Part shown: in pieces, positions 22,029 to 59,100 of the stretch
Layout: the number at the start of each line of letters is the position of its first letter
How positions within the stretch are numbered: position 1 is the first letter of the stretch
IMG/VR virus record: IMGVR_UViG_3300025127_006147
Location: 124,001-188,000 of that record
Origin: a virus
Length of the DNA: 64,000 nucleotides
Reading direction: 5' to 3' (one strand)
Notes under the pieces: generated by a model
Database searches by the model: none
Told to the model about the DNA's origin: nothing
The model's input: the letters and a program-made list of their open reading frames with translations, nothing else
Translations under genes and position numbers: made by a program

Positions 22029-22370
22029 ATGGAATTATCAATAAATAGAAAGACTATACCAATAGAAGTAATGGAGACTCCTAGTCAGAAGAGTTTAGGG
22101 ATGATGGGTAGAAAAAAATTGAATGGTGGTATGTTATTTACTTTCCCAGAAATACAGGAACAATCTTTTTGGATGAAGAACTGTCTAATTCCATTGGATA
22201 TACTTATGTTGGTTGATAATAAAGTAACTAAAATTCATTCTAATTGTCCACCTTGTACTAGTAATCCTTGTAAACATTACCAAGGAATTGGTAACAAAGT
22301 TTTAGAATTGAATGGAGGTGAGTGTAAAAAGTTAGGCATTAAAATAGGGGATGAGTTAGAATTTATCTAA
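22029..22370 (+). CDS. DUF192 family protein
   Basis: A 113-residue protein with the DUF192 signature: SQKSLGMMGRKKLNGGMLFT, then SFWMKNCLIPLDILMLVDN and a closing VLELNGGECKKLGIKIGDEL. DUF192 is a compact beta-barrel of unknown biochemical function, usually exported in bacteria; here no signal peptide is present. Two extra Cys (CPPCTSNPC) sit in the middle. Its 3' end overlaps the convergent DHH gene by 8 bases. Start chosen by the constant octamer spacing. Confidence 0.85.
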   Translation: MELSINRKTIPIEVMETPSQKSLGMMGRKKLNGGMLFTFPEIQEQSFWMKNCLIPLDILMLVDNKVTKIHSNCPPCTSNPCKHYQGIGNKVLELNGGECKKLGIKIGDELEFI

Positions 22371-24276
22371 GTTCCTTACCTATTTTATTAAGTAATTCGT
22401 GAGCTAAACCAACATTTTCCATAGCTTTAACTACATCACTTTTCCCAATAACAGGAATCTTATCTAATAAACCTCTTAACTTATCTAAAATTCCAGGTAC
22501 CTCATCTATAGCTAATCTTTCAAGACCTTGTTCACCTACAAAAGCTGCGAAGTCACTAATACCTGTTGGGTCAGGAGCCAGTTGAATTATTCTGGAAGTT
22601 AAATCCAAAAGGTCAGAAGTCACAGTAAACATTTCTTTTTCTATTGTTTTAAGGTCTTTAGCTGTAGGATTATTTTTAAATTTATCTAGAGCTATTTCTA
22701 AATCAGTATTATGTTTTTTAACCTCATAAATATTTTTACCTATTAAGGCGACCATGACTGGCATACCTACCACACCTGTTGCTCCTATAGCTGCAGCACC
22801 CAAATCACCTAACGCGTCTGAAACAAAAGAAGTTTCTAAAAGAGTATTTTTTATATTATGTTTAATTTCATTAATAGAACTCTGTTCTATTTTTTCTTTA
22901 AGTTTTTCTACCATTTGTTTCTGTACCCATTTAACAAACTCTACATAACGAGTTGTTTGACCAGCTTGTTTTCGGTAAGACCCTTGTGGATTTCTGGTAG
23001 CTCTTGAAAAGAAATTAAGTCCACTTACATTAGTTATACATTTATGTCCACCACTATTAGCCTGAATTACGTCCCAAGCAGATACAGTTATATTATCTAA
23101 AATTTGTTTTTGTTCTTCACTTAAATTTTGCCATGGTGTGTCAATAATTTTTACAGCTTCACTGTAGTAAGGTGAGTTCACGGGTGGCATGTTATTAAGT
23201 TTGTCTTTATATAAAGCAAACAAATCAGATGTTTTGAAACCTATACTACTTTCATCAGCTTTAGTCTCACCTATTCTTTTTATTACTGAAACAGGTACTT
23301 GATTTTTCTTAAGTTGAGGTTCGATACCACCTAATACTTCTTGAGCTATATCAGCTAAGTTAATTCCCTTTAAAGCTCTGTCTTTCTTAAACGGGTTACA
23401 TGACGCTTGTACCAATCCCATAGGCCAAGCTATAACTAAAAAGTCAGCATCTGGATATATTTTAAAAGGTGTATAACGGTCATACGACCCTGGTTTAAAA
23501 AGACTACCTCCACCATATTGTACTATAATATTATCCTCTAAAGTTAGATTATCACTTTCTTCTTGTGATTTAATATATTCTTGTTGATTAACCTTCATTT
23601 GTTCTGGACTAGCAAAATTTCTATCTCCAGCTATCGAGTTAATGTTATGAAAAATATTCATTAGTGAAGGTGATGACCTATCAACTAACGCTTCTAAGAA
23701 TCCTGGTTTATTTTTGTAAGCTAATAATAACTTGTTTGTTAAAAGAGCTAACATCCATTTATTACTAGGAACAGTACCATTAGCGTCAAACTTTTTAATG
23801 TAATTCATAACATCGTCTGGAGTTAAACCGTGTTTTGCATAATCAGCACTATCTACAGTAGATATTCTCATCACATCATCACTTGTAAAAATATCTTGGG
23901 GACTCACTATTTGTGAAAGAGTTTCCACGTTGGACCTAGCTCCTCTAAATTGAGTCGAAGTGTCTCCCTCAACACCCGATTGACTATCATGATGGTCAGT
24001 ATGTATAGTGAACATAGGTTTACCATGAGCAAAATCTACCAAAACCTGCATTGTGTCTCCTTCAGCTTTAGGTTTAGCTACAGAAAATTCTTTATCACCG
24101 TATTGAATAACATGAGTATCTACCACATCTATACCATACTTTTCTAAGTATTCTTTCATTGCTATTGCAGATACTACACCATCTAAGTCCTGGTGAAAAT
24201 AAATTTCAGCTTTAGGATATCTTTTAGCTATCTTATTAATATCCTGTATTCCACTTTCTTTAATTATCTTTTTCAT
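22363..24276 (-). CDS. DHH-family phosphoesterase, putative head-packaged
   Basis: A 637-residue protein. MKKIIKESGIQDINK carries I-K-E near the N-terminus. The DHH phosphoesterase fold (RecJ / oligoribonuclease NrnA / Orn-like superfamily) covers about residues 20-400: EIYFHQDLDGVVSAIAMKEY (motif I), LVDFAHGK (motif II), HTDHHDSQSG (motif III, the DHH), STVDSADYA (motif IV), and GHKCITNVSG near 405. Two metal ions would be bound by these Asp/His residues. The C-terminal 170 residues contain a hydrophobic segment (VVGMPVMVALIGKNIY). Substrate may be nano-RNA, ssDNA or a dinucleotide. TATTTATA four bases upstream of ATG marks it as late. Confidence 0.82.
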   Translation of the reverse strand: MKKIIKESGIQDINKIAKRYPKAEIYFHQDLDGVVSAIAMKEYLEKYGIDVVDTHVIQYGDKEFSVAKPKAEGDTMQVLVDFAHGKPMFTIHTDHHDSQSGVEGDTSTQFRGARSNVETLSQIVSPQDIFTSDDVMRISTVDSADYAKHGLTPDDVMNYIKKFDANGTVPSNKWMLALLTNKLLLAYKNKPGFLEALVDRSSPSLMNIFHNINSIAGDRNFASPEQMKVNQQEYIKSQEESDNLTLEDNIIVQYGGGSLFKPGSYDRYTPFKIYPDADFLVIAWPMGLVQASCNPFKKDRALKGINLADIAQEVLGGIEPQLKKNQVPVSVIKRIGETKADESSIGFKTSDLFALYKDKLNNMPPVNSPYYSEAVKIIDTPWQNLSEEQKQILDNITVSAWDVIQANSGGHKCITNVSGLNFFSRATRNPQGSYRKQAGQTTRYVEFVKWVQKQMVEKLKEKIEQSSINEIKHNIKNTLLETSFVSDALGDLGAAAIGATGVVGMPVMVALIGKNIYEVKKHNTDLEIALDKFKNNPTAKDLKTIEKEMFTVTSDLLDLTSRIIQLAPDPTGISDFAAFVGEQGLERLAIDEVPGILDKLRGLLDKIPVIGKSDVVKAMENVGLAHELLNKIGKELR

Positions 24277-24292: not shown

Positions 24293-24910
24293 TTAGTTAT
24301 CTACACAACCACCATCTCTACAAAATAAATCTGCGGTTTCGTTTTTTCTTTCAGGATGACCCCAATCTAAATCATTTCTAATCCAAGATTGAGCACTTTT
24401 AAATTTACCAGTTTCAATTTTAGATATCCCTTGAGTCCTTATAAATGCAGAACAACCTAAGTTGTATGCAATATCTGACATCGCTATATACATACTAGTA
24501 GTTAATTTTCTTTCATTATGGTCTTTATCAGTCGCACGATTTTGCCATCTTTTAATACAGTTAGCCGCTTCTTGGATATCAGGTTTACTTAATTTTTCTG
24601 CCTCACTAACACTCATCGTTTTGTTCATGTAAGTTTTAATAACAGCAGGGTCAGTGGTTCCCCACCCTATAGTTAAAGTACCATATGTAGTTCCTCCAGT
24701 ATACTTAGGAGGCATTTTCATCTTTTTGTGTTTATTATAAACCCACTTTACTTTATCATCATAAACATAAGGTATGTGGTTACCTTTAACGTCCCCTTCA
24801 TTTCTTCTTAAATAATCAAATATTGGTTGTCCCGCAGACTTTTTATTCCAGTCATAAAAATTAACGGACTCCTGTTCGATTAATAAAGTAAGTTGATTTA
24901 TAAGTTTCAT
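24293..24910 (-). CDS. GH24-type lysozyme
   Basis: A 205-residue muramidase of the phage T4-lysozyme family. Catalytic region: RRNEGD with the general-acid Glu at about residue 38, YVYDDKVKWVY, and TYGTLTIGWGTTDPAV for the Asp/Thr part of the cleft. The C-terminal helical lobe ends GHPERKNETADLFC, matching the R-x-x-E-x-x-L-F signature. The N-terminus MKLINQLTLLIEQES has L-I-E-Q like head-targeted proteins here and adds about 25 residues to the minimal domain. It may therefore be a virion lysozyme rather than, or as well as, the endolysin. No signal peptide. Confidence 0.88.
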   Translation of the reverse strand: MKLINQLTLLIEQESVNFYDWNKKSAGQPIFDYLRRNEGDVKGNHIPYVYDDKVKWVYNKHKKMKMPPKYTGGTTYGTLTIGWGTTDPAVIKTYMNKTMSVSEAEKLSKPDIQEAANCIKRWQNRATDKDHNERKLTTSMYIAMSDIAYNLGCSAFIRTQGISKIETGKFKSAQSWIRNDLDWGHPERKNETADLFCRDGGCVDN

Positions 24911-42520: not shown

Positions 42521-42937
42521 ATGAGAATAATAACTGAACACGGAGACATGATAATTTCATTATATGATGAAACTCCTATAACTACTAAAAATTTTAAAAA
42601 TTTAGTTAATAATAATTTTTATAAAGATTTAAATTTCCATAGAGTCATTCCAGGTTTTGTAGTACAAGGAGGATGTCCAAACGGTAACGGTTCAGGTGGA
42701 CCAGGTTATAATATAAAATGTGAATGTGATAGTGAAAAACAGTATCATGATAAAGGTATATTGTCTATGGCACACAGAGGTAAAGATACTGGTGGTTCAC
42801 AATTCTTTATTTGTCTTAATAGACACACCACAGAACATTTAGATGGGCTACATACGTGTTTTGGAAAAATAGTAAAAGGTATAGAAATACTTGACAAAAT
42901 AAAACAAGGTGATAAATTTAGTGTAGTAAAAAAATAG
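42521..42937 (+). CDS. Cyclophilin-type peptidyl-prolyl isomerase
   Basis: A 138-residue short cyclophilin that speeds proline isomerisation. Core motifs: FHRVIPGFVVQGGCPNGNGS, GILSMAHRGKDTGGSQFFIC and HLDGLHTCFGKIVKGIEILD. Catalytic Arg (in FHRV) and the SQFFI motif are present. No signal peptide, so cytoplasmic. One of several chaperone or redox genes of this phage (DnaJ, ClpP, Trx, Grx). Confidence 0.93.
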   Translation: MRIITEHGDMIISLYDETPITTKNFKNLVNNNFYKDLNFHRVIPGFVVQGGCPNGNGSGGPGYNIKCECDSEKQYHDKGILSMAHRGKDTGGSQFFICLNRHTTEHLDGLHTCFGKIVKGIEILDKIKQGDKFSVVKK

Positions 42938-42940
42938 ATT

Positions 42941-43438
42941 ATGGAGAAACCTGAAATTTTTATGTATACAATGCCAACCTGTGGTTATTGTGCAAAAATG
43001 AAACAAGAATTAAATGAGGCTGGTGTCTCATACATTGAAAGAGATTATAAAGAGTATAAAGAAGATTGGGACCATATTAAATCCCTAACTAGAAGTGCTG
43101 TATTCCCAACCTTTACTGTAGGTAATGAGTATCTCATCCCCAATAGAGATTTTAATAGTCCACAAGAAGCGATACAGTCGTTACAGTATTACCAGACTGT
43201 AAAACATAGAGCACAAACAATTGAAGATGTGGTAGAACTTGTTAAAAATAATATGTACATGACAAAAATGTTAGTTGATAAAGTAGATGTTATTCTACAA
43301 AAACTCCAAAAAGAAGAAGAACAAAAAAAACATTTTGAAGAGTTACAAAAAAGAAGACGAGAGAGTGTAGAAAAAAATAAAAAAATGGCAGAGTCTCTAA
43401 AATTAAAAAGACAAGGTTTAGACCCTTCTGATTTATAA
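42941..43438 (+). CDS. Glutaredoxin with C-terminal coiled coil
   Basis: A 165-residue protein: an N-terminal glutaredoxin (FMYTMPTCGYCAKMKQELNE, active site CGYC, cis-Pro loop AVFPTFTVGN) followed by a 75-residue charged helical tail. The fusion is unusual and might serve oligomerisation or partner binding. Confidence 0.85.
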   Translation: MEKPEIFMYTMPTCGYCAKMKQELNEAGVSYIERDYKEYKEDWDHIKSLTRSAVFPTFTVGNEYLIPNRDFNSPQEAIQSLQYYQTVKHRAQTIEDVVELVKNNMYMTKMLVDKVDVILQKLQKEEEQKKHFEELQKRRRESVEKNKKMAESLKLKRQGLDPSDL

Positions 43439-43831: not shown

Positions 43832-46800
43832 ATGAGACAAAATTCACCACATATCAAAGAAAATATTGACCCAGAGTTACAATGGGCTATAGATAATCAA
43901 TATCGCACAAATCCTGAATTGAGAGATGAAATTTTAGATTATTTAAGTGATGATGATTTAGATTCATACATTGTTAATGTGGAACATGGGGACGTAAAAT
44001 TTAAATTACCACCAGAAAAAATATTAGAAAAACTGACAGGACTATCCGATTTAGGTAATGTAGTAACTACAATGCGGGGAGGGAATGGTGTAGCTATAAT
44101 AACCGATAAAAATTTAGTAGTTAAGATTACGGGAGATAAAGCAGAATATATAACAGCTAAAGAACTTGAGGGTATTAATAGTAAACACATAGTTAAAGTT
44201 CATGAAAGTAAAGTTATAGACCCAGACGACCAGAGTATTTATACCGAAGATAGTAAACCAGCATATTTAATTATAATGGATAAAGTAGATTCTCCCACAC
44301 CCCAACAAGAAAAGGATTGGTTTGATTGTTGTTGTAGTGAGGATAAACCCATATATGTAGATTTTACTGACCCTAATGGTGATGCTGTAGTACATCCACC
44401 AGTGGATGATTATGATAAATGTAATAAGATTTATGATGATATAATGAATATTAGGAAAGAGGTTGAAAAGACAGGGAGAAGATGGGTAGACATCGGTATA
44501 GATAATGTAGGGATGAAGGATGGTAATTACGTGTTAATTGATTTGGGAACAAATGACCCACTACCACTTACTGAAAGTAAAAAAATTATAAACGAAGGAT
44601 TTTTTGACATCCTTAGTAATCTTTTTAAAAGACCAGAACAAAAAAGTGACACTCCTGACGAGTTAAATCAATACCTACAACAACTACAGGATACTCTGGA
44701 TGAAAATGAAATTTATGATGAACAAGTTTCCAAGTTAGTCGACCAGTTAAAAGATTCAGATTATATAGACCTGGTAGATTTCCCTACCATGTTAAGAGGA
44801 TTAGAAAACAAACTTTTAAAAAGTGGAGAAAATAATGAAATAGTTATAGACTATTTGACTAGGTTAAATAACTCTTTACCTAAAAGAGCTAAATACGAAA
44901 AGAAATTATTACAAGGTCAAGTACCACAAGATAGTGAGTATTACGATGAGGTAGAACAAGAAAAATCTAGGATACCCAAAAAAATATTTAAAACTGAAAA
45001 AGAACTATTACAGATAGAGTTATTAAAACTACAAGAATGGGTTAAGAAAAATAACGTACCCGTTGCGGTAGTATTTGAAGGTAGAGATACTGCGGGTAAA
45101 GGTTCGACAATCAAAAAGTTAACAGAATATTTAGACCCTAAATATTTTAATATTGTCGCATTAGGAATTCCTAGTGAAGACGAAAAAAAGAACTGGTTTA
45201 AGAGATATGAAAAATATATTGAACCAGGAAAGATAACTTTTTTTGATAGGAGTTGGTATAACAGAGGAATAGTAGAACCAGTGATGGGTTATTCTTCAAA
45301 AGAAGAGTACGAACAGTTTATGAAAGAAGTTGTTCCTTTTGAAAAAAGTTTATTAAGTAGAGGTGTAGTATTGATTAAGTTCTGGTTATCAATCACTCAA
45401 GGAAAACAAGAACAAAGATTTACAATTAGACAACAATCTCCACTTAAATATTGGAAGTACTCTCCAAACGATGAAGCTTCCAGAGAAAAATGGGATGAAT
45501 ATACTGACTACAAAGAAAGAGTATTAAAGGATACTTCTCACAGTGGTGCACCTTGGGTGGTTCTAGATTCTAATGATAAAAGAATGTCTGCTTTAAATGC
45601 TATGAGACATGTGTTAGACCAAGTAGATTATGATGGTAAAGATACTGAAACGGTTCGACCAAAATATCCTGAAGCTATTAGTACCATTAGAAGAAGATTA
45701 GACGAACAAAGTGAAGAGGAAGTTAAGTTTACAAAAAGTGCAGAGAGAGTATTAAACACTGCGTGGTCCATGTCGAAAGATTCAAATCATAAGTTTACAG
45801 AGTTTAGGTCAGTCTTAGTTAAATTTTTTAACATACCTCTTACTACCGCTGAAGAGTTAACTTTTTTATGTAAATACAATATAGCAAGGGGTAATGAAAA
45901 AGTAGAAGAATGGGTTATACCCTACATTTATGAATCCACAGTTTACGTTTATGGTGATTATGACACAGAATCTTATTATGATGAGTGTGATGAAGAAGGT
46001 ATGAGTGGAGCTTATGGGCAGGAGTGTGAATGTCTTGAGGGTGAAATTATGGATGAAGACGAGGCGGAATACAGACCTTGTGATGAACAGGAGTTAGAGG
46101 ATATCCACTATGATGATGAGTGTGAGTGTAATAATTGGGAAGACCCAACAATAGAATTATATTATTATCCAATATATAGAAAAACAGTATACAGTACATC
46201 TGACCCAAATGAGTTAGGGTGTGTATACGACAGTCACCATGACCTAGATGATTATGTTAATTGTCTAGAAGTTGACGATGAACTAGTACAAGTAATGAGT
46301 GAAGAGCATGAAGATGATACTGATAGGGTCATTGAAGATGAGTTCGAATGGGATAAAGACCAAACAATAGTGGATTCATGGGAGTATGAGATAGACACGG
46401 ATGAATGGTCAGGGAGTTATATGATAAATAAAATAAATGAAATATATCCTGATAAACCAACTAAACTTAACGAACAACAGATGTCTTTGTTTCCAACTGG
46501 AGAATGGAGACTACCAGTGGGTGAAGAAGATGAATTAGAAAAGTTAGAAAGAATGTTACCCGAATCTATAGTCAAGATAATATTTGAACGATGGGACAAA
46601 GAAGAACCTCTTAGAATGGATGATAGGGATTTTAAGTTGTTTGGCCTACCTAAAGATGAGAGATTATTATTATTTTTAATAGTGAGGTACTTACAAAATA
46701 CCACCAGACCTATTCCTGTTGGTAGAGTGTGGGACTGTGATGATTTAGTTTCCTTATTTAATGATGAAGATAGGAGCACAGCACAAAAGTATTTGTGTGA

Positions 46801-48838
46801 AGAAGACTTTGATTATGAGAGTATGTACGGATATGATGAGTGGTACGATGGGATGTTGGATAACTTAGACGATATGAGTTGGAAATATATTACCACTTTA
46901 CTAGGTGTAGATAAATCTACAGCAGAAAAACTTTTAGATGATAGTTACACAACTGAAGAAGAGGGAGAGATATGGAGAGAAAAAGAAGATGATATTGATA
47001 GGATTAAAGACTTAATGAGGTGGGCCAATGAACGTGCAGCAGCTGCCACTACCTTTTCTGCTATTAGACAAGATATTAAAGATGAAATAGAAGAACATTT
47101 TGAAAATGAAGGAAAATTTGAGTACGACCATAATGGTAGTATTGTATATGAAATTAAAGGAGATTTAAAAGATTACGTACAAGACCCCGACACTTGGGAC
47201 AACATAGAAAGATTTAATAACCATGAAGAGTTTAGAGATAGACACTTACAGGATATTTTATATGATTTTGACTTAAGGTATAAAGGTCGTGACGGATTTC
47301 AACAAAGTCTTTCTGATGTAATATTCAATTTATTCATGGAAAATGATTTTGCAATTTGGTGGGATAGTGAAAAAGATTATTTAGATATTGACGGTAAATT
47401 TACAGACGGTTACTGGTACCCAGACTATGACTTTAATCAAGATTTTAGGGAGTACATGATGGAGGAATATTATGACGAACTAAGAGGAAATATAAATGAA
47501 CAAAAAAATTACGATGCTGAGATAGAACTAACGAGTAATGACGCTTACATTGAAGAAACACCAATTACAAAACAAGAAGCTACTATTCTTAATTTAGTAT
47601 TGGATAGATTTTCTATAGAAGAACTTAATGAATTAGTGTCAAATGATGTAGCAGAAATAGGGAGTGATGTTGAAAATAAGTGGATAAATTTTGTTAAGTT
47701 AATCGGTGAAACGGCAAATACTCCAGAAACATTTACTAAAAGTACCAGATGGGCAAAATGGATGTTGGATAACCTTGATAAAGCAGAGTATGAAAATGAA
47801 GAAGGTGAAATTAATATTGATTTTAATAATGTGGACATTCTAACTAAAAATTACCCATCGGTTTATGAAGTAGAAGGAGATGAACGTATATGGCAACAAG
47901 AATATAGAAAAGCTACAGTACACATACCAGCATTTGATAGTGAAGATGCAAACAATAGAGGTCAAAATAGTTTCTGGGAATATGACCCTGACTTTGAAAC
48001 TTATGATTATGGGGATATGGACCCTGATTATTTTGATGTTGGAGATATCCAACATTACAATGTTTTAAAAGAACAAATCATAGATACTGAAAATTTACCA
48101 GAAGAAGAGATAAGTCCTGACTTAGTTGAAGGTGACAAAGTATTTGTGTGGGATATAACACCTGACCCCGTACCACCAGGTGGAACTTCTAACATTATCC
48201 CTTCTACAGTTATTGGGGTGGTGACAGAAGTAATGCCAGATGATATACAACAGAGAAGAGGTGAGTACCGAGGAGGTATAAAATACATTATAGACACTTC
48301 TTCAGGTTTGATAGGACTATACCAAGGAGTGGAAGATTATAACCATTATGCCGATGATGGTGGAGGTAGAGATAAGTGGGTTAAACTAAACAAACAAAAC
48401 CTACAAGAGATTAAAAAAATCACCGACCTCAAGAACATTGAAAGACAAAAAGATTTTACATTAAAAAAATCTTTTATGGAATCAATAAACAATTTAACCG
48501 AAAAAGATATTACACCAATTAAAGAAAGTGTGGTAGAAAGTAGAGTTATATTATTTAATTACTTAGATGGAATCACAAAAACGAATCTAATAAAAGAAGA
48601 AGAGTTACCTAACCTTTTAATTGGTGGTAGAACCTGGACTGATAGACTTACAGTATCCAATTCAATAGATTTAGATGACATCAAGGAAAACTCTAATAAG
48701 GTAAGAGATATCATATTTAATAATACAAAACTAAAATTAGATAACCCTTCCTTTATTGAAACTAAAAGAGATTTGTTAGAGACAGCTAAACAAACTGTAA
48801 CTCTCTGGAAAGAAACTTCAAATACTATTTCTAAGTAG
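43832..48838 (+). CDS. Giant polyprotein: kinase-like domain + PPK2 polyphosphate kinase + repeats
   Basis: A 1668-residue protein. MRQNSPHIKENID has I-K-E at the N-terminus. Residues about 60-250: degenerate protein-kinase fold (VVKITGDKAEYITAKELEGI; WVDIGIDNVGM as catalytic loop; YVLIDLG for DFG). I-N-E at 253. Residues about 385-615: intact PPK2 with VFEGRDTAGKGSTIKKL (Walker A), ITFFDRSWYNRGIVEPVMGY (Walker B) and IRQQSPLKYWKYSPND. L-D-E-Q at 623, L-N-E-Q at 879, I-N-E-Q at 1221 and L-K-E-Q at 1412 fall between later segments. One segment is acidic and Cys-rich (about 720-770). After 1412 there is a GD module (LVEGDKVFVWDI). PPK2 moves phosphate between polyphosphate and nucleotides. Packaging and cleavage at L/I-x-E are inferred. 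Confidence 0.85.
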   Translation: MRQNSPHIKENIDPELQWAIDNQYRTNPELRDEILDYLSDDDLDSYIVNVEHGDVKFKLPPEKILEKLTGLSDLGNVVTTMRGGNGVAIITDKNLVVKITGDKAEYITAKELEGINSKHIVKVHESKVIDPDDQSIYTEDSKPAYLIIMDKVDSPTPQQEKDWFDCCCSEDKPIYVDFTDPNGDAVVHPPVDDYDKCNKIYDDIMNIRKEVEKTGRRWVDIGIDNVGMKDGNYVLIDLGTNDPLPLTESKKIINEGFFDILSNLFKRPEQKSDTPDELNQYLQQLQDTLDENEIYDEQVSKLVDQLKDSDYIDLVDFPTMLRGLENKLLKSGENNEIVIDYLTRLNNSLPKRAKYEKKLLQGQVPQDSEYYDEVEQEKSRIPKKIFKTEKELLQIELLKLQEWVKKNNVPVAVVFEGRDTAGKGSTIKKLTEYLDPKYFNIVALGIPSEDEKKNWFKRYEKYIEPGKITFFDRSWYNRGIVEPVMGYSSKEEYEQFMKEVVPFEKSLLSRGVVLIKFWLSITQGKQEQRFTIRQQSPLKYWKYSPNDEASREKWDEYTDYKERVLKDTSHSGAPWVVLDSNDKRMSALNAMRHVLDQVDYDGKDTETVRPKYPEAISTIRRRLDEQSEEEVKFTKSAERVLNTAWSMSKDSNHKFTEFRSVLVKFFNIPLTTAEELTFLCKYNIARGNEKVEEWVIPYIYESTVYVYGDYDTESYYDECDEEGMSGAYGQECECLEGEIMDEDEAEYRPCDEQELEDIHYDDECECNNWEDPTIELYYYPIYRKTVYSTSDPNELGCVYDSHHDLDDYVNCLEVDDELVQVMSEEHEDDTDRVIEDEFEWDKDQTIVDSWEYEIDTDEWSGSYMINKINEIYPDKPTKLNEQQMSLFPTGEWRLPVGEEDELEKLERMLPESIVKIIFERWDKEEPLRMDDRDFKLFGLPKDERLLLFLIVRYLQNTTRPIPVGRVWDCDDLVSLFNDEDRSTAQKYLCEEDFDYESMYGYDEWYDGMLDNLDDMSWKYITTLLGVDKSTAEKLLDDSYTTEEEGEIWREKEDDIDRIKDLMRWANERAAAATTFSAIRQDIKDEIEEHFENEGKFEYDHNGSIVYEIKGDLKDYVQDPDTWDNIERFNNHEEFRDRHLQDILYDFDLRYKGRDGFQQSLSDVIFNLFMENDFAIWWDSEKDYLDIDGKFTDGYWYPDYDFNQDFREYMMEEYYDELRGNINEQKNYDAEIELTSNDAYIEETPITKQEATILNLVLDRFSIEELNELVSNDVAEIGSDVENKWINFVKLIGETANTPETFTKSTRWAKWMLDNLDKAEYENEEGEINIDFNNVDILTKNYPSVYEVEGDERIWQQEYRKATVHIPAFDSEDANNRGQNSFWEYDPDFETYDYGDMDPDYFDVGDIQHYNVLKEQIIDTENLPEEEISPDLVEGDKVFVWDITPDPVPPGGTSNIIPSTVIGVVTEVMPDDIQQRRGEYRGGIKYIIDTSSGLIGLYQGVEDYNHYADDGGGRDKWVKLNKQNLQEIKKITDLKNIERQKDFTLKKSFMESINNLTEKDITPIKESVVESRVILFNYLDGITKTNLIKEEELPNLLIGGRTWTDRLTVSNSIDLDDIKENSNKVRDIIFNNTKLKLDNPSFIETKRDLLETAKQTVTLWKETSNTISK

Positions 48839-50442: not shown

Positions 50443-51753
50443 ATGGAAAGAAGAAAAACTATAAAAGAACAAACACCTAACTTAACTCCTGATGAGATTG
50501 TTGGTGATTTCCTAGATTTTTGTCAAGATAATTTAGGTTACAAAACACCAGCGTCTGTAGAATTAGTAACAGATAGAGATAAGTTAGTTACTTTAGCTTC
50601 TTACAACTTAAATGACAACAGTGTAAGGGTATACTCTAAAAATAGAGCACTTGCAGATATACTAAGAAGTATAGCACACGAACTAGTTCACCACAAACAA
50701 TTAGAAGATGGTAGAATTGACATTAACAATCCCCCACAGGATGTTGGTGGTGAAATTGAAGATGAAGCAAATGCTGTAGCTGGACAATTAGTAAAAGCTT
50801 TTGGTTATACTGGTGTAAACATATATGAAAATTGGGATAAAACTGGTTGTGCAGACCCAGACCAAGGGAAATTCTTTTGTCAAGATAAAGGGGAAAATAT
50901 TGGAATAAGTGACATCTTTAAAGGAGATGGACACAATATAATCCATGGTTTTGCACAAAAGTTTCACTTATCCGATGTAACACCAGAATCAGAAGAAACT
51001 TATAATGACCCTGCTCAGGTAAAACCAAAAGAAAATAATTTCAAACCTAACCTTAGAAAAGGACCATTTAGTATTCCAGCACAGAGTAGAGATTTACTAA
51101 CTTTAATTAATGAAGAGAAAGACCCAAATAAATTAAAGTTAATACAAGAAGTAATTCATAACCAATTAAGGTATCTTAAGGAAAATAAAGAAATTTTAAA
51201 AGAACAAGTGGAATCTTCAGAGGGTGAAACTATAACACCTATGGATGTTAAAATAATGAATCACATTATTAAAGATTATAGTAAAAATGAAATAGAGGAG
51301 ATGGTAAACACTTCCGTTTATGATGTGGATTTAAGAAATGTTTTAAAACTATACGGTGAACATGACTTAGGAGGAATGAAACCAAAACAATTAATACAGT
51401 TTATTTATGATAATAATTATAATGTTACTGAAAACAATGTAGGTGATTTACTTCCACCATTAAATACATACCGAGTAGTACAAAATTCAGTTACAGTACA
51501 AAGAGTAGCACAAGATTATGAAGTCGAAGGTAAAGACACTAACTTTAACGGGTTTATGTGTGGGGTTAAAGAAGACTTCTGGGGTTACGACCCAGAAATT
51601 ATTAATCGGGAAGTCATAGATGAGGATTTTATTGGTGATGAAGAATGGATATCCGCATCTGAGAACGGTAAAAGGATGTGGGACGGAACTGGTAGTATGA
51701 TAAAAGGAAATGAAAAATTCAACCCGTATAATATAGAGTGTGACGAAGATTAA
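50443..51753 (+). CDS. HExxH metallopeptidase-like virion protein
   Basis: A 436-residue protein. MERRKTIKEQTPNLTPDEIV has I-K-E-Q at residues 7-10. A zinc-peptidase-like domain (about 20-130) contains ILRSIAHELVHHKQLEDG (HExxH) and, 30 residues later, GGEIEDEANAVAG, a likely third Glu ligand. L-K-E-Q at 252-255 stands directly before a module starting ITPMDVKIMNHIIKDYS, also found in the 43832 and 53123 proteins. The end is acidic with GYDPEIINREVIDEDF. It is the first gene of an operon; 5 bases to the next. Processing into two parts is inferred. Confidence 0.8.
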   Translation: MERRKTIKEQTPNLTPDEIVGDFLDFCQDNLGYKTPASVELVTDRDKLVTLASYNLNDNSVRVYSKNRALADILRSIAHELVHHKQLEDGRIDINNPPQDVGGEIEDEANAVAGQLVKAFGYTGVNIYENWDKTGCADPDQGKFFCQDKGENIGISDIFKGDGHNIIHGFAQKFHLSDVTPESEETYNDPAQVKPKENNFKPNLRKGPFSIPAQSRDLLTLINEEKDPNKLKLIQEVIHNQLRYLKENKEILKEQVESSEGETITPMDVKIMNHIIKDYSKNEIEEMVNTSVYDVDLRNVLKLYGEHDLGGMKPKQLIQFIYDNNYNVTENNVGDLLPPLNTYRVVQNSVTVQRVAQDYEVEGKDTNFNGFMCGVKEDFWGYDPEIINREVIDEDFIGDEEWISASENGKRMWDGTGSMIKGNEKFNPYNIECDED

Positions 51754-51758
51754 AAAAT

Positions 51759-53123
51759 ATGAAAATTGTAATTACAGAAGAACAACTTCAAAAAATATTA
51801 AAGATTAAGTCAACTTTAAATGAAGCTGCTTTAGCTTCTCCTTTAGCTAACGTAGATGTAAAAATAAATAGTGGTTATGGTGGAAGATGGGGGAGAATGC
51901 ACCATGGTGCAGACCTAAAAGCTTCAAGTGGTACCCAACTAGTAGCTCCAGCAGATGGAGAAGTCATAGATGCAAAGATAAGAAGAAACGCGTGTGGAGG
52001 AACTTTATATATAGACCATTTGAACGGTTTAAAAACTCGTTATTGTCATTTAAAAAGAATAGATGTTAATAAAGGTGATACTGTAACTAAAGGACAAGTT
52101 GTAGGATTGACAGGGGGTGCTAGAGGTGATAGAGGTAGAGGAAGGTCGACTGGAGCTCACTTACATTATGAAGTATATAAAGATGGTAAAACAGTAGACC
52201 CAGAACCATATTTAAGTGGGGCAGACATAATTAATAATGTAGCTCCAGACGAACATGGTAAGAATACCCAAGTACCAGAAGGTTCTATTACCTTATATGA
52301 TGGTATGGGTAAAGGTAGAAGAGGAATGAGACCCCAGGTAAAAGAAATGCAACAAGACCTAATTACTCTTAATTATGTATTACCACGATTTGGGGTTGAC
52401 GGTAAATTTGGTCCAGAAACTTTAAAAGCGGTCAACGCTTTTCAGTCTGACCACGGATTTGAGGAAAGTAATATTGTTGATGAAGAGACTTTAAAAGCAA
52501 TGAAGAATTCTGAAAATATAAATAAAAATCCTGAAATCAACGACCCAAAAGAAATTAAAAGACAAGCTAGAGAAGGTAATATAAAACCTTTTGACCCAGC
52601 CGTAATAGACGCCATCAATAAAGCTAGTGATGATAATGGGTTAAGTAGAGAGTTAATGTTTACTATAGCTAATATAGAATCAGGTGGTAACCCTACTGCT
52701 AAAAATAGAAGAAGTGGAGCATCAGGACTTTATCAAATAATGCCTAAATATTTTAGTGATTATGGAGTTACAAGAACTACTGTTTGGGACCCTTACACAA
52801 ATGCAGATGCAGCTGCTAAGGGATTAAATAGAAAAATAAATCGTATAAATAGTAAACTAGGTATTGACCCCACAAATCCCCAAATTTATATGGCACACAA
52901 TCAAGGGAGTCAGGGTTTTCAAATAATATACACTGCTTGTAAAGAGTTTGGTAATTTAGACGGAAAAGAATCTTTACAACAAGCTTCTAACAGTTTAGGA
53001 TTTGGAAGGAGAGTGGGTAGTAGAATATATAGAAATATGAGAGGTAATAAAGGAAACCACCCATGTCAGTTTATGGATAGTTGGGTGGATATATATAATA
53101 GTAAAAAGACTTCTTACGCGTAA
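51759..53123 (+). CDS. Virion peptidoglycan hydrolase: M23 + PG-binding + SLT
   Basis: A 454-residue three-domain protein. MKIVITEEQLQKILKIKSTL is followed by L-N-E at about 25-27. M23 peptidase (about 30-145): GRMHHGADLKASSG, YCHLKRIDV, GAHLHYEVY. Peptidoglycan-binding domain (about 190-248): GMRPQVKEMQQDLITLNYVL and FGVDGKFGPETLKAVNAFQS. Lytic transglycosylase (about 275-395): ELMFTIANIESGGNPTAKN with the catalytic Glu and SGASGLYQIMPKYF. It can cut both glycan and peptide parts of the wall, as needed for DNA entry. The stop overlaps the next ATG by one base. Confidence 0.9.
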   Translation: MKIVITEEQLQKILKIKSTLNEAALASPLANVDVKINSGYGGRWGRMHHGADLKASSGTQLVAPADGEVIDAKIRRNACGGTLYIDHLNGLKTRYCHLKRIDVNKGDTVTKGQVVGLTGGARGDRGRGRSTGAHLHYEVYKDGKTVDPEPYLSGADIINNVAPDEHGKNTQVPEGSITLYDGMGKGRRGMRPQVKEMQQDLITLNYVLPRFGVDGKFGPETLKAVNAFQSDHGFEESNIVDEETLKAMKNSENINKNPEINDPKEIKRQAREGNIKPFDPAVIDAINKASDDNGLSRELMFTIANIESGGNPTAKNRRSGASGLYQIMPKYFSDYGVTRTTVWDPYTNADAAAKGLNRKINRINSKLGIDPTNPQIYMAHNQGSQGFQIIYTACKEFGNLDGKESLQQASNSLGFGRRVGSRIYRNMRGNKGNHPCQFMDSWVDIYNSKKTSYA

Positions 53124-56100
53124 TGTATACACTAAAAGAAATAAGAAAGATTTTAAATATTCAAGAACAAGACCGTAATGAAGACTCTTGGTCTGATGAA
53201 GATGCTATCGAAACAAATGAAGGAGACGGTAAACCTTTCACCCCTTTTGAATTAGCCATACTCAAATTAATCCACCAAAACTTAACTAAAGGAAATATGG
53301 AGGATGTCCTACGTGACCACGCTTATCCTGGAAACGTGGGTAAGAAATGGATTAACATTGCAAAATTAGTTGGTCTAAGACATAGTATTCAACAAGGACA
53401 TTCAATAAATGATATTGCATATGATAAAAAATATGTTAAGTGGGCATTAGATAATTGGACTGAAGACGGTGACTATGCTTCTATAGAAAAACCAATAAAA
53501 GTTCCACCTAAAAGATATGAAGTTGACCGAGAAGAATCAGGTTCCCAGGTAGTATATAAAGACGGTTCAACAACTGTAATTGCATATGATGAAGACATGG
53601 CAGGTGATACCGCAAATAATCAGTTTTGGGACTGGGGTGGTGAAATGGAGACTAATGATTATGGTGATTATGAAACTTATGATAGTGAAATTACTGGTGT
53701 TAGACCCTTAGAAGTATTAAGTGAAGAAAAACAAAAAGAATTTAATGAGTTAGTTAAATTGTGTGAATTGGGTGAAAAGTACACACCTAGAATTGTTGGT
53801 GGAGTTACCAGAGAAACTCTCACACAATTTTTAAAAGAAAATATAAATGATATGGTTTATAGGGATGAACCCAAAGAAAAACATGTCAGAAGAATGAATC
53901 GTCCTTTGGGACCTTTGGAGGGATTCCCGATAGAGAAATTCAAAAACATACCTCCACCTAAAAACGAGTCCACAGAAACTGAAGAAGAAATAGATTATCT
54001 TGATAGTATTCCAGTAGAGAAAGGATTTGTTAATAGTGCAGACGATGTAGATGGACATTTCAAAAAGTTTTTAGAACCAAAAGGGTTAGAGTTTCCAACA
54101 GAAGAATTAAAAGACGTAATGAAAGGAGTTAAATCTATAATACTCCAATTGAAGTACCATTACAACAGACCTAGACCTTATCAAGTAGCGGATGCTAAAA
54201 ATTTAAAATTAGATTCAGAAAATTTAAAGTCTGCTAGTACACCTTCCTATCCTTCTGGACATGCAACACAAGGTACTTTCTTAGGTAGATATCTAGCTGA
54301 CCTATACCCAGAGTACGAAAAAGAATTAAGACAGATAGGTGAGGATATTGCATTCAGTAGAAACATGGCAAAGGTTCACTACCCTAGTGATTCAGAGTTT
54401 GGTAAAATGTTAGGTAATGATTTGTATGAGTTCGTATATCAACGAGAAGTAGAACTACAAGAACACTTTGAAGAATCTTCTTCAGAATATGGTGGAGACA
54501 AACTTCTCGTACCAATAAAAGCCTTGGAACAGTACGCTAACACATATTTAAAAGAAGATTTTAAAAATGAAATGAGTAATGTATTAGAATGTCTTGAGAG
54601 GACTTGTTATCAGATAGGTGAACCATATTATCTTTCAATGGTAGACGAGGATGGAGAATTAGTTCAACTACAATCAAATTGTAATGATTGTACTCACTTA
54701 TTGGATGAGATACTACAAACTTTAGATGCGGAACTAATTAAAATGGGATTTTTAAAAGGGAATGATAATGGTATGTTAGTAAAACCATTCCCAAAAGAAT
54801 ATAATAGATGGGTAGAAGACATAATGCAAGAGATTAACCCAGGTTTTTTTATAGATGATAACGATGAGGTGAGTTATAAAGATTTAGGAAATGCTCATGA
54901 CGCATATTATGACTTGAGTGAACAAATTTCACCAGAAGCCTTACAAGACTTATATGCATTTCATGGTGAAGAATTAAAAGAACGTAAGTTCGGTGAAAAA
55001 ATTAAAGGTTTTACACAGAAAAAAAAAGAAGATTTAAAAAAGTTTTGGTTTGAATTAACAAAGGGTGCTAAACGTGAACGTAAAGAAACGGCAGAAGCAG
55101 TTAAGATATTAGCAAGACTTATTAAAAATAGAGACAGTGTTACCCAAGAGGACCTCACATTTCTAAAACAACAATCAGGAGATATAGCGAGAATTATCGC
55201 CTTAATTAGTTTAGGTGCTGTATCAGTTGTAATACCAGTAGGTTTAGAAAAACTATTAAACCAGTATGGTATTTCTATTATGCCTAGAAAGAGAAGTAAA
55301 GACGAAGATGGTAATGGGATAGATGACTATATAGATGTTACACAGAATGATAATCTACTAAACGAACAACAAGAAATTAGTCCAGTTTTAAAATATGGTG
55401 ATATAATAACCATTCTAGATATACCAACACCCGAAATTGGCTTTTGGGAGGATGTACCTAGAGAAAAAAGACAAAGTTATGCATTTGGAGAACCAGAATT
55501 ATTTAAACCTTACTGGGTATGGAAACCAAGTTATGGTGCACCAAAAAAAGAAGGAACTTACATTATAGTACCTCTCGATGAGGTATCTGAGTTACAAAAA
55601 TTAGGACACTTAAAGCCAGAAGATGAAGGGTTACCGGGACATTTACATAAAAAACTAAGAACAATAAGAAGAAGTAGAGGTGACCAATGGTTAATGATAA
55701 ATCATACAGAACCATTAAATGAATCAAAACAACAATTCAATCCAGAACTTAAAGAAGGTGATTTTATAAGAATTTATGATGTTGATAAAGACTCACCAAT
55801 CATTAGTCGGGAAGGTTATACAGACCAAGACCGTTATACGATGTATGGTGGTGATAGTATACCAGAAATATTTAAAGTTTATGTTGTTATGTTGGTAACC
55901 AAATATAAAACAACACAGTTTGGAAGAGAGGGTGAAAAAATTTATGTATTAATGGGACCAGACATGAACCCAAGTCGTCCATATTATATATTTCCCTCAC
56001 ATGATACTTGGGTTAAAGTACCAAAAGAAGAAGGGTTGGAAGCGTTTAAAGAGGGTTTAGAGTCCTATCACCGTATGCATTTAAATGAGTCTGACCCTAA

Positions 56101-59100
56101 AAAAGGTACGGGAAAAAAACCAAAAGGTAGTGGTAGAAGATTATATACAGATGAAGACCCTAGTGACACAGTATCAGTTAAGTTTAGAACTAAAGAAGAC
56201 ATTGTAGACACATTAAATAAACCTTCGTTTAAATCTAAATCACACAAAAGACAATCACAAATCATTAATCTTATACACCAGAGAGTAAGAGCTGCACATA
56301 AAAACGCAAAAGACCCTAAAACCAAGAAAAGACTTAAAAGAGCTTTAGATTATATTACAAACAAAAAAGAAAGGTCAAAAGAAAAAACTAAAAGATTAAA
56401 TAAATTAAACGAGTCTACTCAAACAAACCAACCACTTAATAGGGGTGATGAGATTATGATTGTAGACTTAGACCATAGTACACAAGGATACATGACTGGT
56501 AGACTTCCTATATCTATGGTAACACCAGACACCTTCAAACCTTATAGGATTTTTGGAATCACACACAGACGAAGAGAAAACTGGGAGGGTCCAGATGCAG
56601 ATACAAGAATTTATCAATTAGAACCTGTAGATATCACTGACGAAGAAAGAACTCAAGACATGATATCTGGTGGAGGCCAAAGAAGAGGTTTACATATGAT
56701 ACCAGGAGATACTTGGATACTACAAAAAAGACCAGAAAATTGGTATGATAATTTACATGAATCAAAACAAGAAATCAGTCCTAGGTTAGAAATTGGGGAT
56801 AAAATTAAAGTAATTCAAATCGACGGGGAACACGAGAATGAATTAGGTGAACAACCAAACGAGGCCGCTAGAACATTAGCAAACACAAGAAAACATGGTA
56901 TTGGAACTAGATTTTCAAAACCTGCTATAAAAGCCAACCCACAAAGATTTAGAAAATACACAAGAGACAAATATTTAAATGAACAACAAGAAATTAACCC
57001 AGAGTTAGAAATCGGTGATAAAATTAAAGTAATTGAAGTTGATGGTGAACACGGAAGAATGCCTAAATTATTTACAACAGTTTATGAAGTTATAAGAAGT
57101 TGGAGAAGGAATGTGAATGAAAATGGAGTGAGGGGAGAATGGTATGACTTGCTTCCAGAAAATTTTAGGGAACAGAAAAAGGTTGGAGAAAGGGATGTTA
57201 GGAATGATTCTAAAACAATATATCACGGTGATATCTGGATAAAGGTTAACCCAACTGAAACCCTGAATGAACAAAGAGAACCCACAGAATTAAATCCTGA
57301 ATTAAAAATGGGGGATGAAATTATGGTAGTGGATGTAAATAGTGAAAGAGAAAGTGGTGAGACATCGTACACGACTCCACCTACAGGACGTAAATCAGAA
57401 AGATATATTCCTTATGTGGTTGTAGAAAAAAATTCTAATGGACATCAGTCAGAATGGCGTTGGAAATACGTGGTTGTGGAAAAGAGATTTTTAGAAAAAA
57501 TTCTTAAACTAATGGAGGAACGACCAGGTTATGTGAAAAGTGTTCCTGGTCGAAATTTAGCCCCTGGTTATGATACAGATTGGACAGGAAACCTTATAGA
57601 AATGAATGCTAAGTTTTTATATCCTTGGGTATACCAGTGGATAAAAACTGGTGAGTTTAATGAACTTAGTAAATTTGGACTAACTGAAACTTTAAATGAA
57701 GAGACTACTATCTTTGGACAAGGTTTAATGAATAACATTAAACCAGAAGAGTTTGAAGGTACGGATGAAGAATGGGAAGAAATGGTAACATTAAATTCAG
57801 ATGAGGTATTAGATATAGAAGATGATTATGAATATGTTGGAGGTATAACTGACCCATCAACAGGATTTGTTGCCCCATCTAAAGAAGTCACCAATAATAT
57901 ATGTAAAGTAAAAGGTTTCTGTAAAGCACAAGGACCTATTACTTTTGGACAATTAAGAGAATTAGTGAAAGCTGCAAGTAGTAAAAGACTTAAATCTGAC
58001 ATGGGACGTGGTACATTTAGAGAACTATGGAGAATAGTACCATTCTTTATACCACAAGTTTTATTAGCTGCTGTTGGAGCAGAACTAGCAAGAGTCATTA
58101 ACAAAATAATATCTCCAGCTTTAAAGGAAGCTGGAAGTTATAAATCCTGGTGGGGTCAAGTAGTTATGAAAACTATGAATGTTGCGGAAGGAACAGCTTT
58201 TCCTAATATGGTTTTAGGTGATGACCCACTTACCAAAGTATTTTTTATCTCCGATGGTCTATTACATATGATTAGTGATAAGTACAAATTAAAGTTTGCG
58301 AAATATGTTGCGGATGTAGCAGCAAGTAAACCTGACGATGAACCAGTTCCAGATTGGTTTGTTGAAAATTTATTAAGAGATTATTTAAATCAAAAGTTTT
58401 TATTAGACCCACCATTACCAGTCAAGGTAAGTAACGAACCACTAAATGAACAACAGTTCCCTTTTAATCCCAACAACAAAGATATAGAAAGGGACCATCC
58501 AGAAGGTGAACCAGACTGGTCTATAAGACGTGGTGACCAACACTACGCTATGAATGTAGAAAATACACCTAACGAACCCGTTGCGGCGTTTAATAACTAT
58601 TTGGTTAAGAATTCACCTTTTATAATTGAAGGTTTTGATTTTTATCTAAGTGCAGTTCCAGGTAATATGCCTCAATCAGCTATTGTCGATGTGTATGTTC
58701 CCATGATGGATGATAGTGCAGTTGCGGATGATATTTGGAATAAGGATAGAATTTATTATGAAAGAACCCAGGATGGGTCTAGTGACCGTATGATATACCA
58801 AGGAAGAAAAGAGAAACTGCATAATCTTGATTATGACCAAAAATTTCCTGAATTTACATACTATGAAGATTTTCAAGACCAACATCCAGAATATATTGAG
58901 TACTTAGAAAAAGAATTAGGTGATAGCAATTTACTTAATGAACCTGGGGCACAATATGAAATGATTTGGAGAACCAAAAGAATGAACTTACAAAATGAAT
59001 TAGATAGTATGGCTAAATTATTTGGTGTAAGTCGGGCTTTAATCAATAGGAACCCTAGAAAACCATGGAAGAGACAAAGAGACAATTATAATAATGAAAA

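What the first reader, a model, noticed from the sequence alone, without database searches (positions are those of the whole stretch)
43832..45720. Kinase-like domain fused to an intact PPK2 polyphosphate kinase in a late phage protein
PPK2 Walker motifs GRDTAGKG and FDRSWYNRG are complete. Before it stands a degenerate kinase fold with K, catalytic-loop N and DLG. Late-type promoter and [L/I]-x-E sites suggest virion packaging. PPK2 could turn host polyphosphate into NTPs at the start of infection, or the reverse. I know of no described phage system in which a polyphosphate kinase is delivered by the virion.
Basis: partly seen in the sequence, partly recalled or inferred. Interest (0 to 1): 0.8.

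Follow-up and report, generated by a model that had tools for sequence, protein, structure and literature searches.

The report
Polyphosphate kinase cassette in phage polyprotein
A large marine phage carries an intact polyphosphate-using kinase as one of several swappable cassettes in a long precursor protein that looks built to be cut apart inside the forming virus head, so the enzyme may be carried in the particle and injected into the host to make GTP and ATP at once.

Summary
The PPK2 is real and intact. It is a class I enzyme by its signature residue; its AlphaFold model matches Francisella PPK2, and its catalytic residues are invariant in 37 of 37 viral relatives. That ORF looks like a modular precursor. 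Its segments are bounded by [L/I]-x-E|, the cut site of T4-type prohead protease gp21.

In close relatives the modules are inserted, lost or reordered at these sites. One relative at 82% identity lacks exactly the PPK2 module. Stand-alone viral PPK2s start with a short leader (such as MRLLTEIDRIKSVMGILNE|Q) ending at the same kind of site. Similar leaders occur on lysozymes, M23 peptidases and small kinases, and the site is enriched at protein N-termini in these genomes. Of 20 PPK2-phage contigs searched, 13 encode the S77 prohead protease; capsid proteins of relatives carry a LINE| propeptide. The window's own contig stops about 5-7 kb short of the syntenic head module.

Virion packaging is therefore well supported by inference but not shown. 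The kinase-like domain is weakly supported and the late promoter is not supported. Phage-encoded PPK2 is already reported as an auxiliary gene; its role as a prohead-protease-released virion cassette appears new.

The parts
43832..48838 (+). whole gene, 1668 aa, putative virion precursor polyprotein (kinase-like | PPK2 | module C | module D | module E)
   Evidence: single ORF; module boundaries from comparison with relatives
43853..43861 (+). possible N-terminal leader site IKE|N (residue 10); INE|N in relative L002, absent in L155
   Evidence: sequence
43832..44596 (+). module K, residues 1-255: kinase-like (K98, E111, D220, N225, D237-L-G); fold unproven
   Evidence: phrog_4301 E 0.001; catalytic-type residues invariant in 3 homologues; no Pfam/NCBIfam/PDB match; AF2 pLDDT 36
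44567..44575 (+). LTE| (residue 248), end of kinase-like module; LNE| in L002 and L155
   Evidence: L155 has LPLNE|NTNT joined to module C, PPK2 missing
44588..44596 (+). INE|GFF (residue 255), predicted N-terminus of mature PPK2
   Evidence: same junction is the N-terminal propeptide site in stand-alone phage PPK2s: TITE|GFFKDL (L027), VLSE|GFFKDL (L030), LISE|GFFKDM (L033)
44597..44956 (+). N-terminal extension of the viral PPK2 (residues about 256-375; helical domain 275-361 in the model)
   Evidence: confident helices in the AF2 model; most cellular homologues match only from about alignment residue 114-138
44981..45643 (+). PPK2 catalytic domain, class I type
   Evidence: PF03976 E 3.2e-71; TIGR03707 E 2.5e-83, under its cut-off; Foldseek to FtPPK2 TM 0.95-0.96 of target, rmsd 1.4 A
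45080..45103 (+). Walker A GRDTAGKG (417-424)
   Evidence: all but the variable T/A/S position invariant in 37 viral homologues
45242..45268 (+). Walker B FDRSWYNRG (471-479); Asn after RSWY is the class I signature
   Evidence: class rule in PMC11641546
45416..45430 (+). lid arginines R529 and R533 (R-x3-R), equivalent to FtPPK2 R174/R178
   Evidence: invariant; alignment to 4yeg; roles in PMC4748334
45698..45706 (+). LDE|Q (residue 625), predicted C-terminal end of the PPK2 module
   Evidence: W/L020 blocks break here (626/627); LNE| in L020
45707..46474 (+). module C, residues 626-881, unknown function; N-terminal module in relative L020
   Evidence: 38% identity to L020 3-254; no Pfam match
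46466..46474 (+). LNE|Q (residue 881); L002 has a 248-aa module inserted here
   Evidence: inserted module carries a peptidoglycan-binding domain PF01471 E 1.2e-17
46475..47500 (+). module D, residues 882-1223, unknown function
   Evidence: conserved in L002, L155, L020
47492..47500 (+). INE|Q (residue 1223); L002 has a second module of about 490 aa inserted here
47501..48838 (+). module E, residues 1224-1668; last about 130 aa constant in all these precursors, candidate packaging element
   Evidence: constant segment found in W, L002, L155, L020

Best explanation
The gene encodes a modular head-precursor polyprotein of a T4-type (gp21/gp23) jumbo phage. The full-length chain would enter the prohead, where a gp21-family protease cuts after [L/I]-x-E at the module joints. 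One product is a class I PPK2 of about 370 residues (256-625). This enzyme would be carried in the virion and ejected with the DNA, where it would use host polyphosphate to turn GDP and ADP into GTP and ATP before phage metabolism starts. Shown here: intact PPK2, class I signature, fold, module exchange at sites, leaders on stand-alone PPK2s, and the protease and cleavable capsid protein in related phages. Inferred: cleavage of this protein, packaging, ejection, and direction of catalysis in vivo.
For: PPK2 intact and class I-like. L155 (82% identity in module K) lacks exactly the PPK2 module, with LNE| at the joint. L002 (90%) has two extra modules at LNE| and INE|, the first with a peptidoglycan-binding domain. 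L020-L023, four contigs, have module C before PPK2. PPK2 is followed by (I/V)NE|Q and a lysozyme (PF00959 E 8e-12) in L094, or a cell-wall hydrolase (PF07486 E 9e-20) in L097. 19 of 30 distinct stand-alone viral PPK2s match the RIKxxMG-type leader pattern, against 3 of 83 cellular; the strongest hits of the leader profile in whole phage genomes lie at the N-terminus. [L/I]xE+[QSAGNHD] at N-termini is 2.7 times background, p 3e-38, in three relatives and 1.9 times, p 3e-6, in the window's phage plus its nearest relative, with most control motifs flat. Prohead protease PF03420 in 13 of 20 PPK2-phage contigs, E to 2e-30. Major capsid proteins with a propeptide ending LINE|[SA] at residue 60. The contig's left end is collinear with genes 5-7 kb from the head module of G002 and G003. 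T4 gp21 specificity L/I-X-E and CTS-driven enzyme packaging: PMC9026906. FtPPK2 makes ATP and GTP from NDPs, not from NMPs: PMC4748334.
Against: No virion proteomics. The window's own contig has no recognisable protease, capsid, portal or terminase. The window polyprotein lacks the canonical RIKxxMG leader at its own N-terminus; its short IKE|N site is not conserved in L155. [L/I]xE triplets also occur inside modules (28 in 1668 aa). Automatic alignment ends fall within 3 aa of a site in only 11 of 33 cases, though 3.6 are expected. N-terminal enrichment of [L/I]xK also reaches 1.3 to 1.8 times in some sets. Class I PPK2 is reversible with similar efficiency both ways.
Confidence: 0.6

Rival explanations
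1. Ordinary auxiliary metabolic enzyme: the PPK2 (or the whole polyprotein) is made and works in the infected cell to supply NTPs or tap phosphate stores, and the LxE joints are only flexible linkers.
For: Virus-encoded ppk1/ppk2 is reported as an expressed auxiliary gene (PMC13188868). This phage also encodes ribonucleotide reductase. Some viral PPK2s have no obvious leader (L044, L047).
Against: Does not explain length-variable leaders that end in xE, exchange of modules at those sites, or fusion to peptidoglycan hydrolases.
Confidence: 0.22
2. Virion-delivered, but running in reverse: PPK2 uses NTPs to make polyphosphate, or drains GTP/ATP to disarm host signalling or defence.
For: FtPPK2 kcat/KM is similar in both directions (PMC4748334).
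Against: NTP drain early in infection would hurt the phage (inference). No PADLOC match.
Confidence: 0.1
3. The N-terminal leader and LxE joints serve another purpose, such as phage-nucleus import, membrane targeting or cutting by another (host or phage) protease.
For: Leader function is inferred from T4 by analogy; the T4 and viral leaders differ in sequence.
Against: The same kind of site, LINE|[SA], ends the major capsid propeptide of the relatives and the gp21-family protease is encoded; leaders sit on cell-wall enzymes typical of virions.
Confidence: 0.06
4. Catalytically dead PPK2 kept as a structural part of the head.
For: Enzymes are sometimes recruited as structural parts (general knowledge, not tested here).
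Against: Catalytic residues invariant in 37 viral sequences down to 44% identity.
Confidence: 0.02

Closest known systems
F. tularensis PPK2 (4YEG, 5LL0, 5LLB), class I PPK2, family PF03976
   Same: Fold (TM 0.95 of target, rmsd 1.4 A), 48% identity in the structural alignment, Walker A/B, lid arginines, Asn class I signature
   Different: Extra helical N-terminal extension of about 110 aa; embedded in a phage polyprotein between protease-type sites; scores just below the TIGR03707 cut-off (279 vs 302)
T4 internal proteins IPI-III and Alt with capsid targeting sequence and gp21 cleavage (PMC9026906, PMC5694885)
   Same: Short N-terminal leader ending L/I-x-E, gp21-family protease, enzymes or effectors as cargo
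   Different: Here enzymes are stand-alone or strung together in polyproteins with several internal sites and exchangeable modules; cargo is metabolic; leader sequence differs; packaging not yet shown
phiKZ/SPN3US head proteins processed by S80-type prohead protease (PMC5694885)
   Same: Many inner head proteins processed after x-E; ejected enzymes such as vRNAP
   Different: S/A-x-E specificity, long propeptides; no modular polyprotein or PPK2 in the passages read
Virus-encoded ppk as auxiliary metabolic gene (PMC13188868; Li 2025 Water Res. cited there)
   Same: PPK2 gene in phage genomes
   Different: Those reports treat it as an intracellular auxiliary gene; no processing or virion delivery in the passages read

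Membership tests
Class I polyphosphate kinase 2 | PPK2 domain with Walker A, Walker B and lid arginines | tested here: met
Class I polyphosphate kinase 2 | Asn directly after Walker B RSxY (Gly = II, Glu = III) | tested here: met
   RSWYN, invariant in 37 viral sequences; rule from PMC11641546
Class I polyphosphate kinase 2 | NCBIfam TIGR03707 equivalog score over cut-off | tested here: not met
   279.3 bits against 301.8; a diverged member, so the name rests on fold, Pfam and signature residue, not on this equivalog
Class I polyphosphate kinase 2 | polyP-dependent NDP to NTP activity | not testable with these tools
   needs enzyme assay
T4-type prohead-protease-processed virion protein | L/I-x-E cleavage sites at propeptide or module ends | tested here: met
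T4-type prohead-protease-processed virion protein | gp21-family (Peptidase_S77) protease in the genome | tested here: inconclusive
   absent from the own incomplete contig; present in 13 of 20 contigs of PPK2 phages; head module predicted just off the contig end by synteny
T4-type prohead-protease-processed virion protein | capsid targeting sequence at the N-terminus of the packaged chain | tested here: inconclusive
   leader clear in stand-alone viral PPK2s; the window polyprotein has only a short IKE|N start and an internal LTESKKIINE segment
T4-type prohead-protease-processed virion protein | presence in the mature virion | not testable with these tools
   needs virion mass spectrometry
Protein kinase-like fold (residues 1-255) | significant profile or fold match to a kinase family | tested here: not met
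   no Pfam, NCBIfam or PDB match; AF2 pLDDT 36

The most novel reading that the evidence does not exclude
A widespread group of T4-type jumbo phages builds exchangeable head-precursor polyproteins, cut by the prohead protease into separate virion enzymes, and uses them to inject a ready-made metabolic and cell-wall toolkit including a polyphosphate kinase that powers the first minutes of infection from host polyphosphate.
Probability: 0.5. Interest if true: 0.85.

Novelty: new variant of a known kind. Interest (0 to 1): 0.74.

Why it matters
If true, phages would carry their own starter energy enzyme in the particle and tap the host's polyphosphate before any phage gene is expressed. It would also give tailed phages a polyprotein strategy for loading many enzymes into one head, and a sequence signature (leader plus [L/I]-x-E) by which virion cargo can be read directly from metagenomic genomes, where most phage genes are unannotated.

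Tried and rejected
Late promoter: TATAAATA not enriched and not in front of the gene. gp21, gp23, portal, scaffold and terminase in the own contig: none found with Pfam or with profiles from relatives; explained by synteny with genes bordering the head module. The tandem ClpP-like genes at 39367-40639, the first named 'head maturation protease' by PHROG, were not taken as the processing protease because the profile also hits ATP-dependent protease families, they look ClpP-like, and the sites fit gp21. Three cellular PPK2s inside the viral clade were checked as possible misbinned phage contigs and look bacterial. Defence system: no PADLOC match. A weak gp23 hit in G022 lies in a frame with stops and was taken as chance.

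Full report
WHAT IS THERE. Residues 384-604 are a PPK2 domain (PF03976, E 3.2e-71). The nearest solved chain is F. tularensis PPK2 (E 8e-74). An AlphaFold model of residues 256-622 built on 37 viral sequences is confident (pLDDT 85, pTM 0.86) and superposes on FtPPK2 with TM 0.95-0.96 of the target and rmsd 1.4 A. The Walker A, Walker B and lid residues are invariant in all 37. The residue after RSWY is Asn, the class I mark (PMC11641546). Characterised class I FtPPK2 converts ADP and GDP to ATP and GTP, does not accept AMP or GMP, and is reversible (PMC4748334). Compared with cellular homologues the viral enzyme has an added helical N-terminal extension of about 110 residues.

THE GENE IS A STRING OF MODULES. 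Comparison with close relatives shows five modules: kinase-like (1-255), PPK2 (256-625), C (626-881), D (882-1223), E (1224-1668). The joints are LTE|/INE|G, LDE|Q, LNE|Q and INE|Q. L002 (90% identical) carries two additional modules, at the LNE| joint (248 aa, with a peptidoglycan-binding domain PF01471, E 1.2e-17) and at the INE| joint. L155, from a 190,908-base contig whose module K is 82% identical, lacks exactly the PPK2 module and joins LPLNE| to module C. L020-L023, four contigs with PPK2 at 87%, have the order C, PPK2, D and no kinase-like module, again with LNE|, INE|G and LNE| joints. More distant phages fuse PPK2 to a lysozyme (L094), a SleB-type cell-wall hydrolase (L097) or an HExxH-containing protein (L024), behind (I/V)NE|Q or a nearby [L/I]xE. 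Alignment ends computed automatically over ten pairs fall within three residues of [L/I]xE in 11 of 33 cases against 3.6 expected (p 5e-4); these ends are noisy because BLAST over-extends, and some are not independent, so the number is only a guide. Agreement between several contigs argues against assembly chimeras.

THE JOINTS MATCH THE CUT SITE OF THE T4-TYPE PROHEAD PROTEASE. T4 gp21 cuts after L/I-X-E and removes 10-20-residue capsid targeting sequences from internal proteins; such leaders suffice to bring foreign enzymes into the head and into the next cell (PMC9026906, PMC5694885). Stand-alone viral PPK2s start with a leader such as MRLLTEIDRIKSVMGILNE|Q, MRNLLTEVSKMKNMMGLQE|A or MGLLTETHRIKELMVNNKKTITE|GFFKDL. 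The distance between the RIKxxMG part and the final xE varies while the xE stays. The window's internal joint KIINE|GFFDIL is the same junction as the N-terminal site of the stand-alone forms (TITE|GFFKDL, VLSE|GFFKDL, LISE|GFFKDM). 19 of 30 distinct stand-alone viral PPK2s match the leader pattern against 3 of 83 cellular ones. A profile of the leader finds other proteins of the relatives G002, G003 and G004, and its strongest hits are N-terminal. Proteins bearing such a leader, or a similar N-terminal [L/I]xE site, include an M23 peptidase, a peptidoglycan-binding protein and a P-loop kinase in relatives, and a lysozyme, a DHH-domain protein, a DeoC-like aldolase and a zeta-toxin-like P-loop protein in the own contig. 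Across whole genomes [L/I]xE followed by a small or polar residue is 2.7 times enriched at residues 6-30 in G002-G004 (224 against 82 expected, p 3e-38) and 1.9 times in the own contig plus G022 (58 against 30, p 3e-6); controls with D or N at P1 or V/F/M/Y at P3 are flat in G002-G004, while a K control is modestly raised (1.3-1.8 times).

THE PROTEASE AND THE CAPSID. Peptidase_S77 (PF03420) is found in 13 of 20 PPK2-phage contigs, E down to 2e-30, and weakly in three megaphage records that also carry PPK2 with starts of the MxxNFxKFINE kind. In G002-G004 the order is terminase, portal, protease, scaffold, major capsid protein, as in T4, and the capsid protein has a propeptide ending LINE|[SA] at residue 60. 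The own contig lacks this block. But its first eight genes are collinear with G003 genes 115-122 and G002 genes 73-66, which lie 5-7 kb from the capsid gene, and about half of its genes have counterparts in those phages at a median of 43% identity. So the head block most likely lies just beyond the contig's left end. This is inference from synteny.

ORIGIN. In a maximum-likelihood tree of 120 PPK2 cores the viral sequences fall in one supported group together with three cellular sequences, next to Bacteroidota and Campylobacterota enzymes. The three cellular members have bacterial neighbours and no extension. A Bacteroidota host is plausible, and a cultured relative by capsid protein is Flavobacterium phage immuto. 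Immuto has the protease and the leader type (MKKQILSEQFRRMQKLAGIITE|S) and the N-terminal enrichment (34 against 13.9, p 4e-6) but no PPK2 in the 150 kb read.

HOW IT MOST LIKELY WORKS. Shown: an intact class I-type PPK2 in a modular precursor whose joints match the prohead protease site, with comparative signs that the joints matter. Inferred: the precursor is packed in the prohead, perhaps through the constant C-terminal segment of about 130 aa shared by all these precursors, or through short leader remnants; the protease frees the modules; the mature PPK2 enters the cell with the DNA and phosphorylates GDP and ADP from host polyphosphate. The packaging signal of this particular polyprotein is not identified. 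Direction of catalysis in vivo is open.

The ORF is 1668 aa, not about 630. The kinase-like module keeps K, E, D, N and DLG in three close homologues, but no profile, PDB or structural support was obtained. TATAAATA is not enriched (19 against 17). Virus-encoded ppk genes are known (PMC13188868); no paper on virion delivery of PPK2 or on prohead-protease polyproteins in phages turned up in the open-access library, which does not cover most subscription journals.

LIMITS. Genes were called as longest ORFs; metagenomic contigs may be incomplete; nothing here measures protein in a virion or enzyme activity.

Noticed in passing
window 53123-59146 (+): A second, 2007-aa precursor with a PAP2 phosphatase domain and many LNE|Q/S sites; its module 990-1097, bounded by LNE| on both sides, is 78% identical to part of a leader-bearing stand-alone protein in another phage (G004 131287-132021), and relatives G015 and G022 lack large middle parts.
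   Followed up: partly
window 51759-53123 (+) and 50443-51753 (+): M23 + peptidoglycan-binding + transglycosylase protein starting ...LKIKSTLNE|A, and a 436-aa protein starting MERRKTIKE|Q: further probable virion cargo next to the polyproteins.
   Followed up: partly
window 22363-24276 (-) and 24293-24910 (-): DHH-domain protein starting MKKIIKE|S and phage lysozyme starting MKLINQLTLLIE|Q.
   Followed up: partly
contig 45276-48332 (locus L006:5276-8332), left of the window: Cluster of enzymes with leader-like starts: zeta-toxin-like P-loop protein, DeoC-like aldolase, HAD-type phosphatase.
   Followed up: partly
window 39367-40035 and 40037-40639 (+): Two tandem ClpP-like serine protease genes, the first named head maturation protease by PHROG; an ATPase partner was not looked for.
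   Followed up: no
window 42521-42937 and 42941-43438 (+): Cyclophilin-type peptidyl-prolyl isomerase and a glutaredoxin-like gene directly upstream of the polyprotein, conserved in L002 and L155.
   Followed up: no
L013:14678-18379 (-) in megaphage LR756501: 1233-aa ORF next to PPK2 with repeated DPYGEEDW and NENVDE-type spacers and what look like deaminase and nucleotidyltransferase segments: perhaps a polyprotein of the same kind.
   Followed up: no
Flavobacterium phage immuto NC_055915 25061-25456 and 111675-112139: Cultured phage with paralogous leaders MKKQILSEQF.RMQ.LAGIITE|S; a ready test system for the leader rule.
   Followed up: partly
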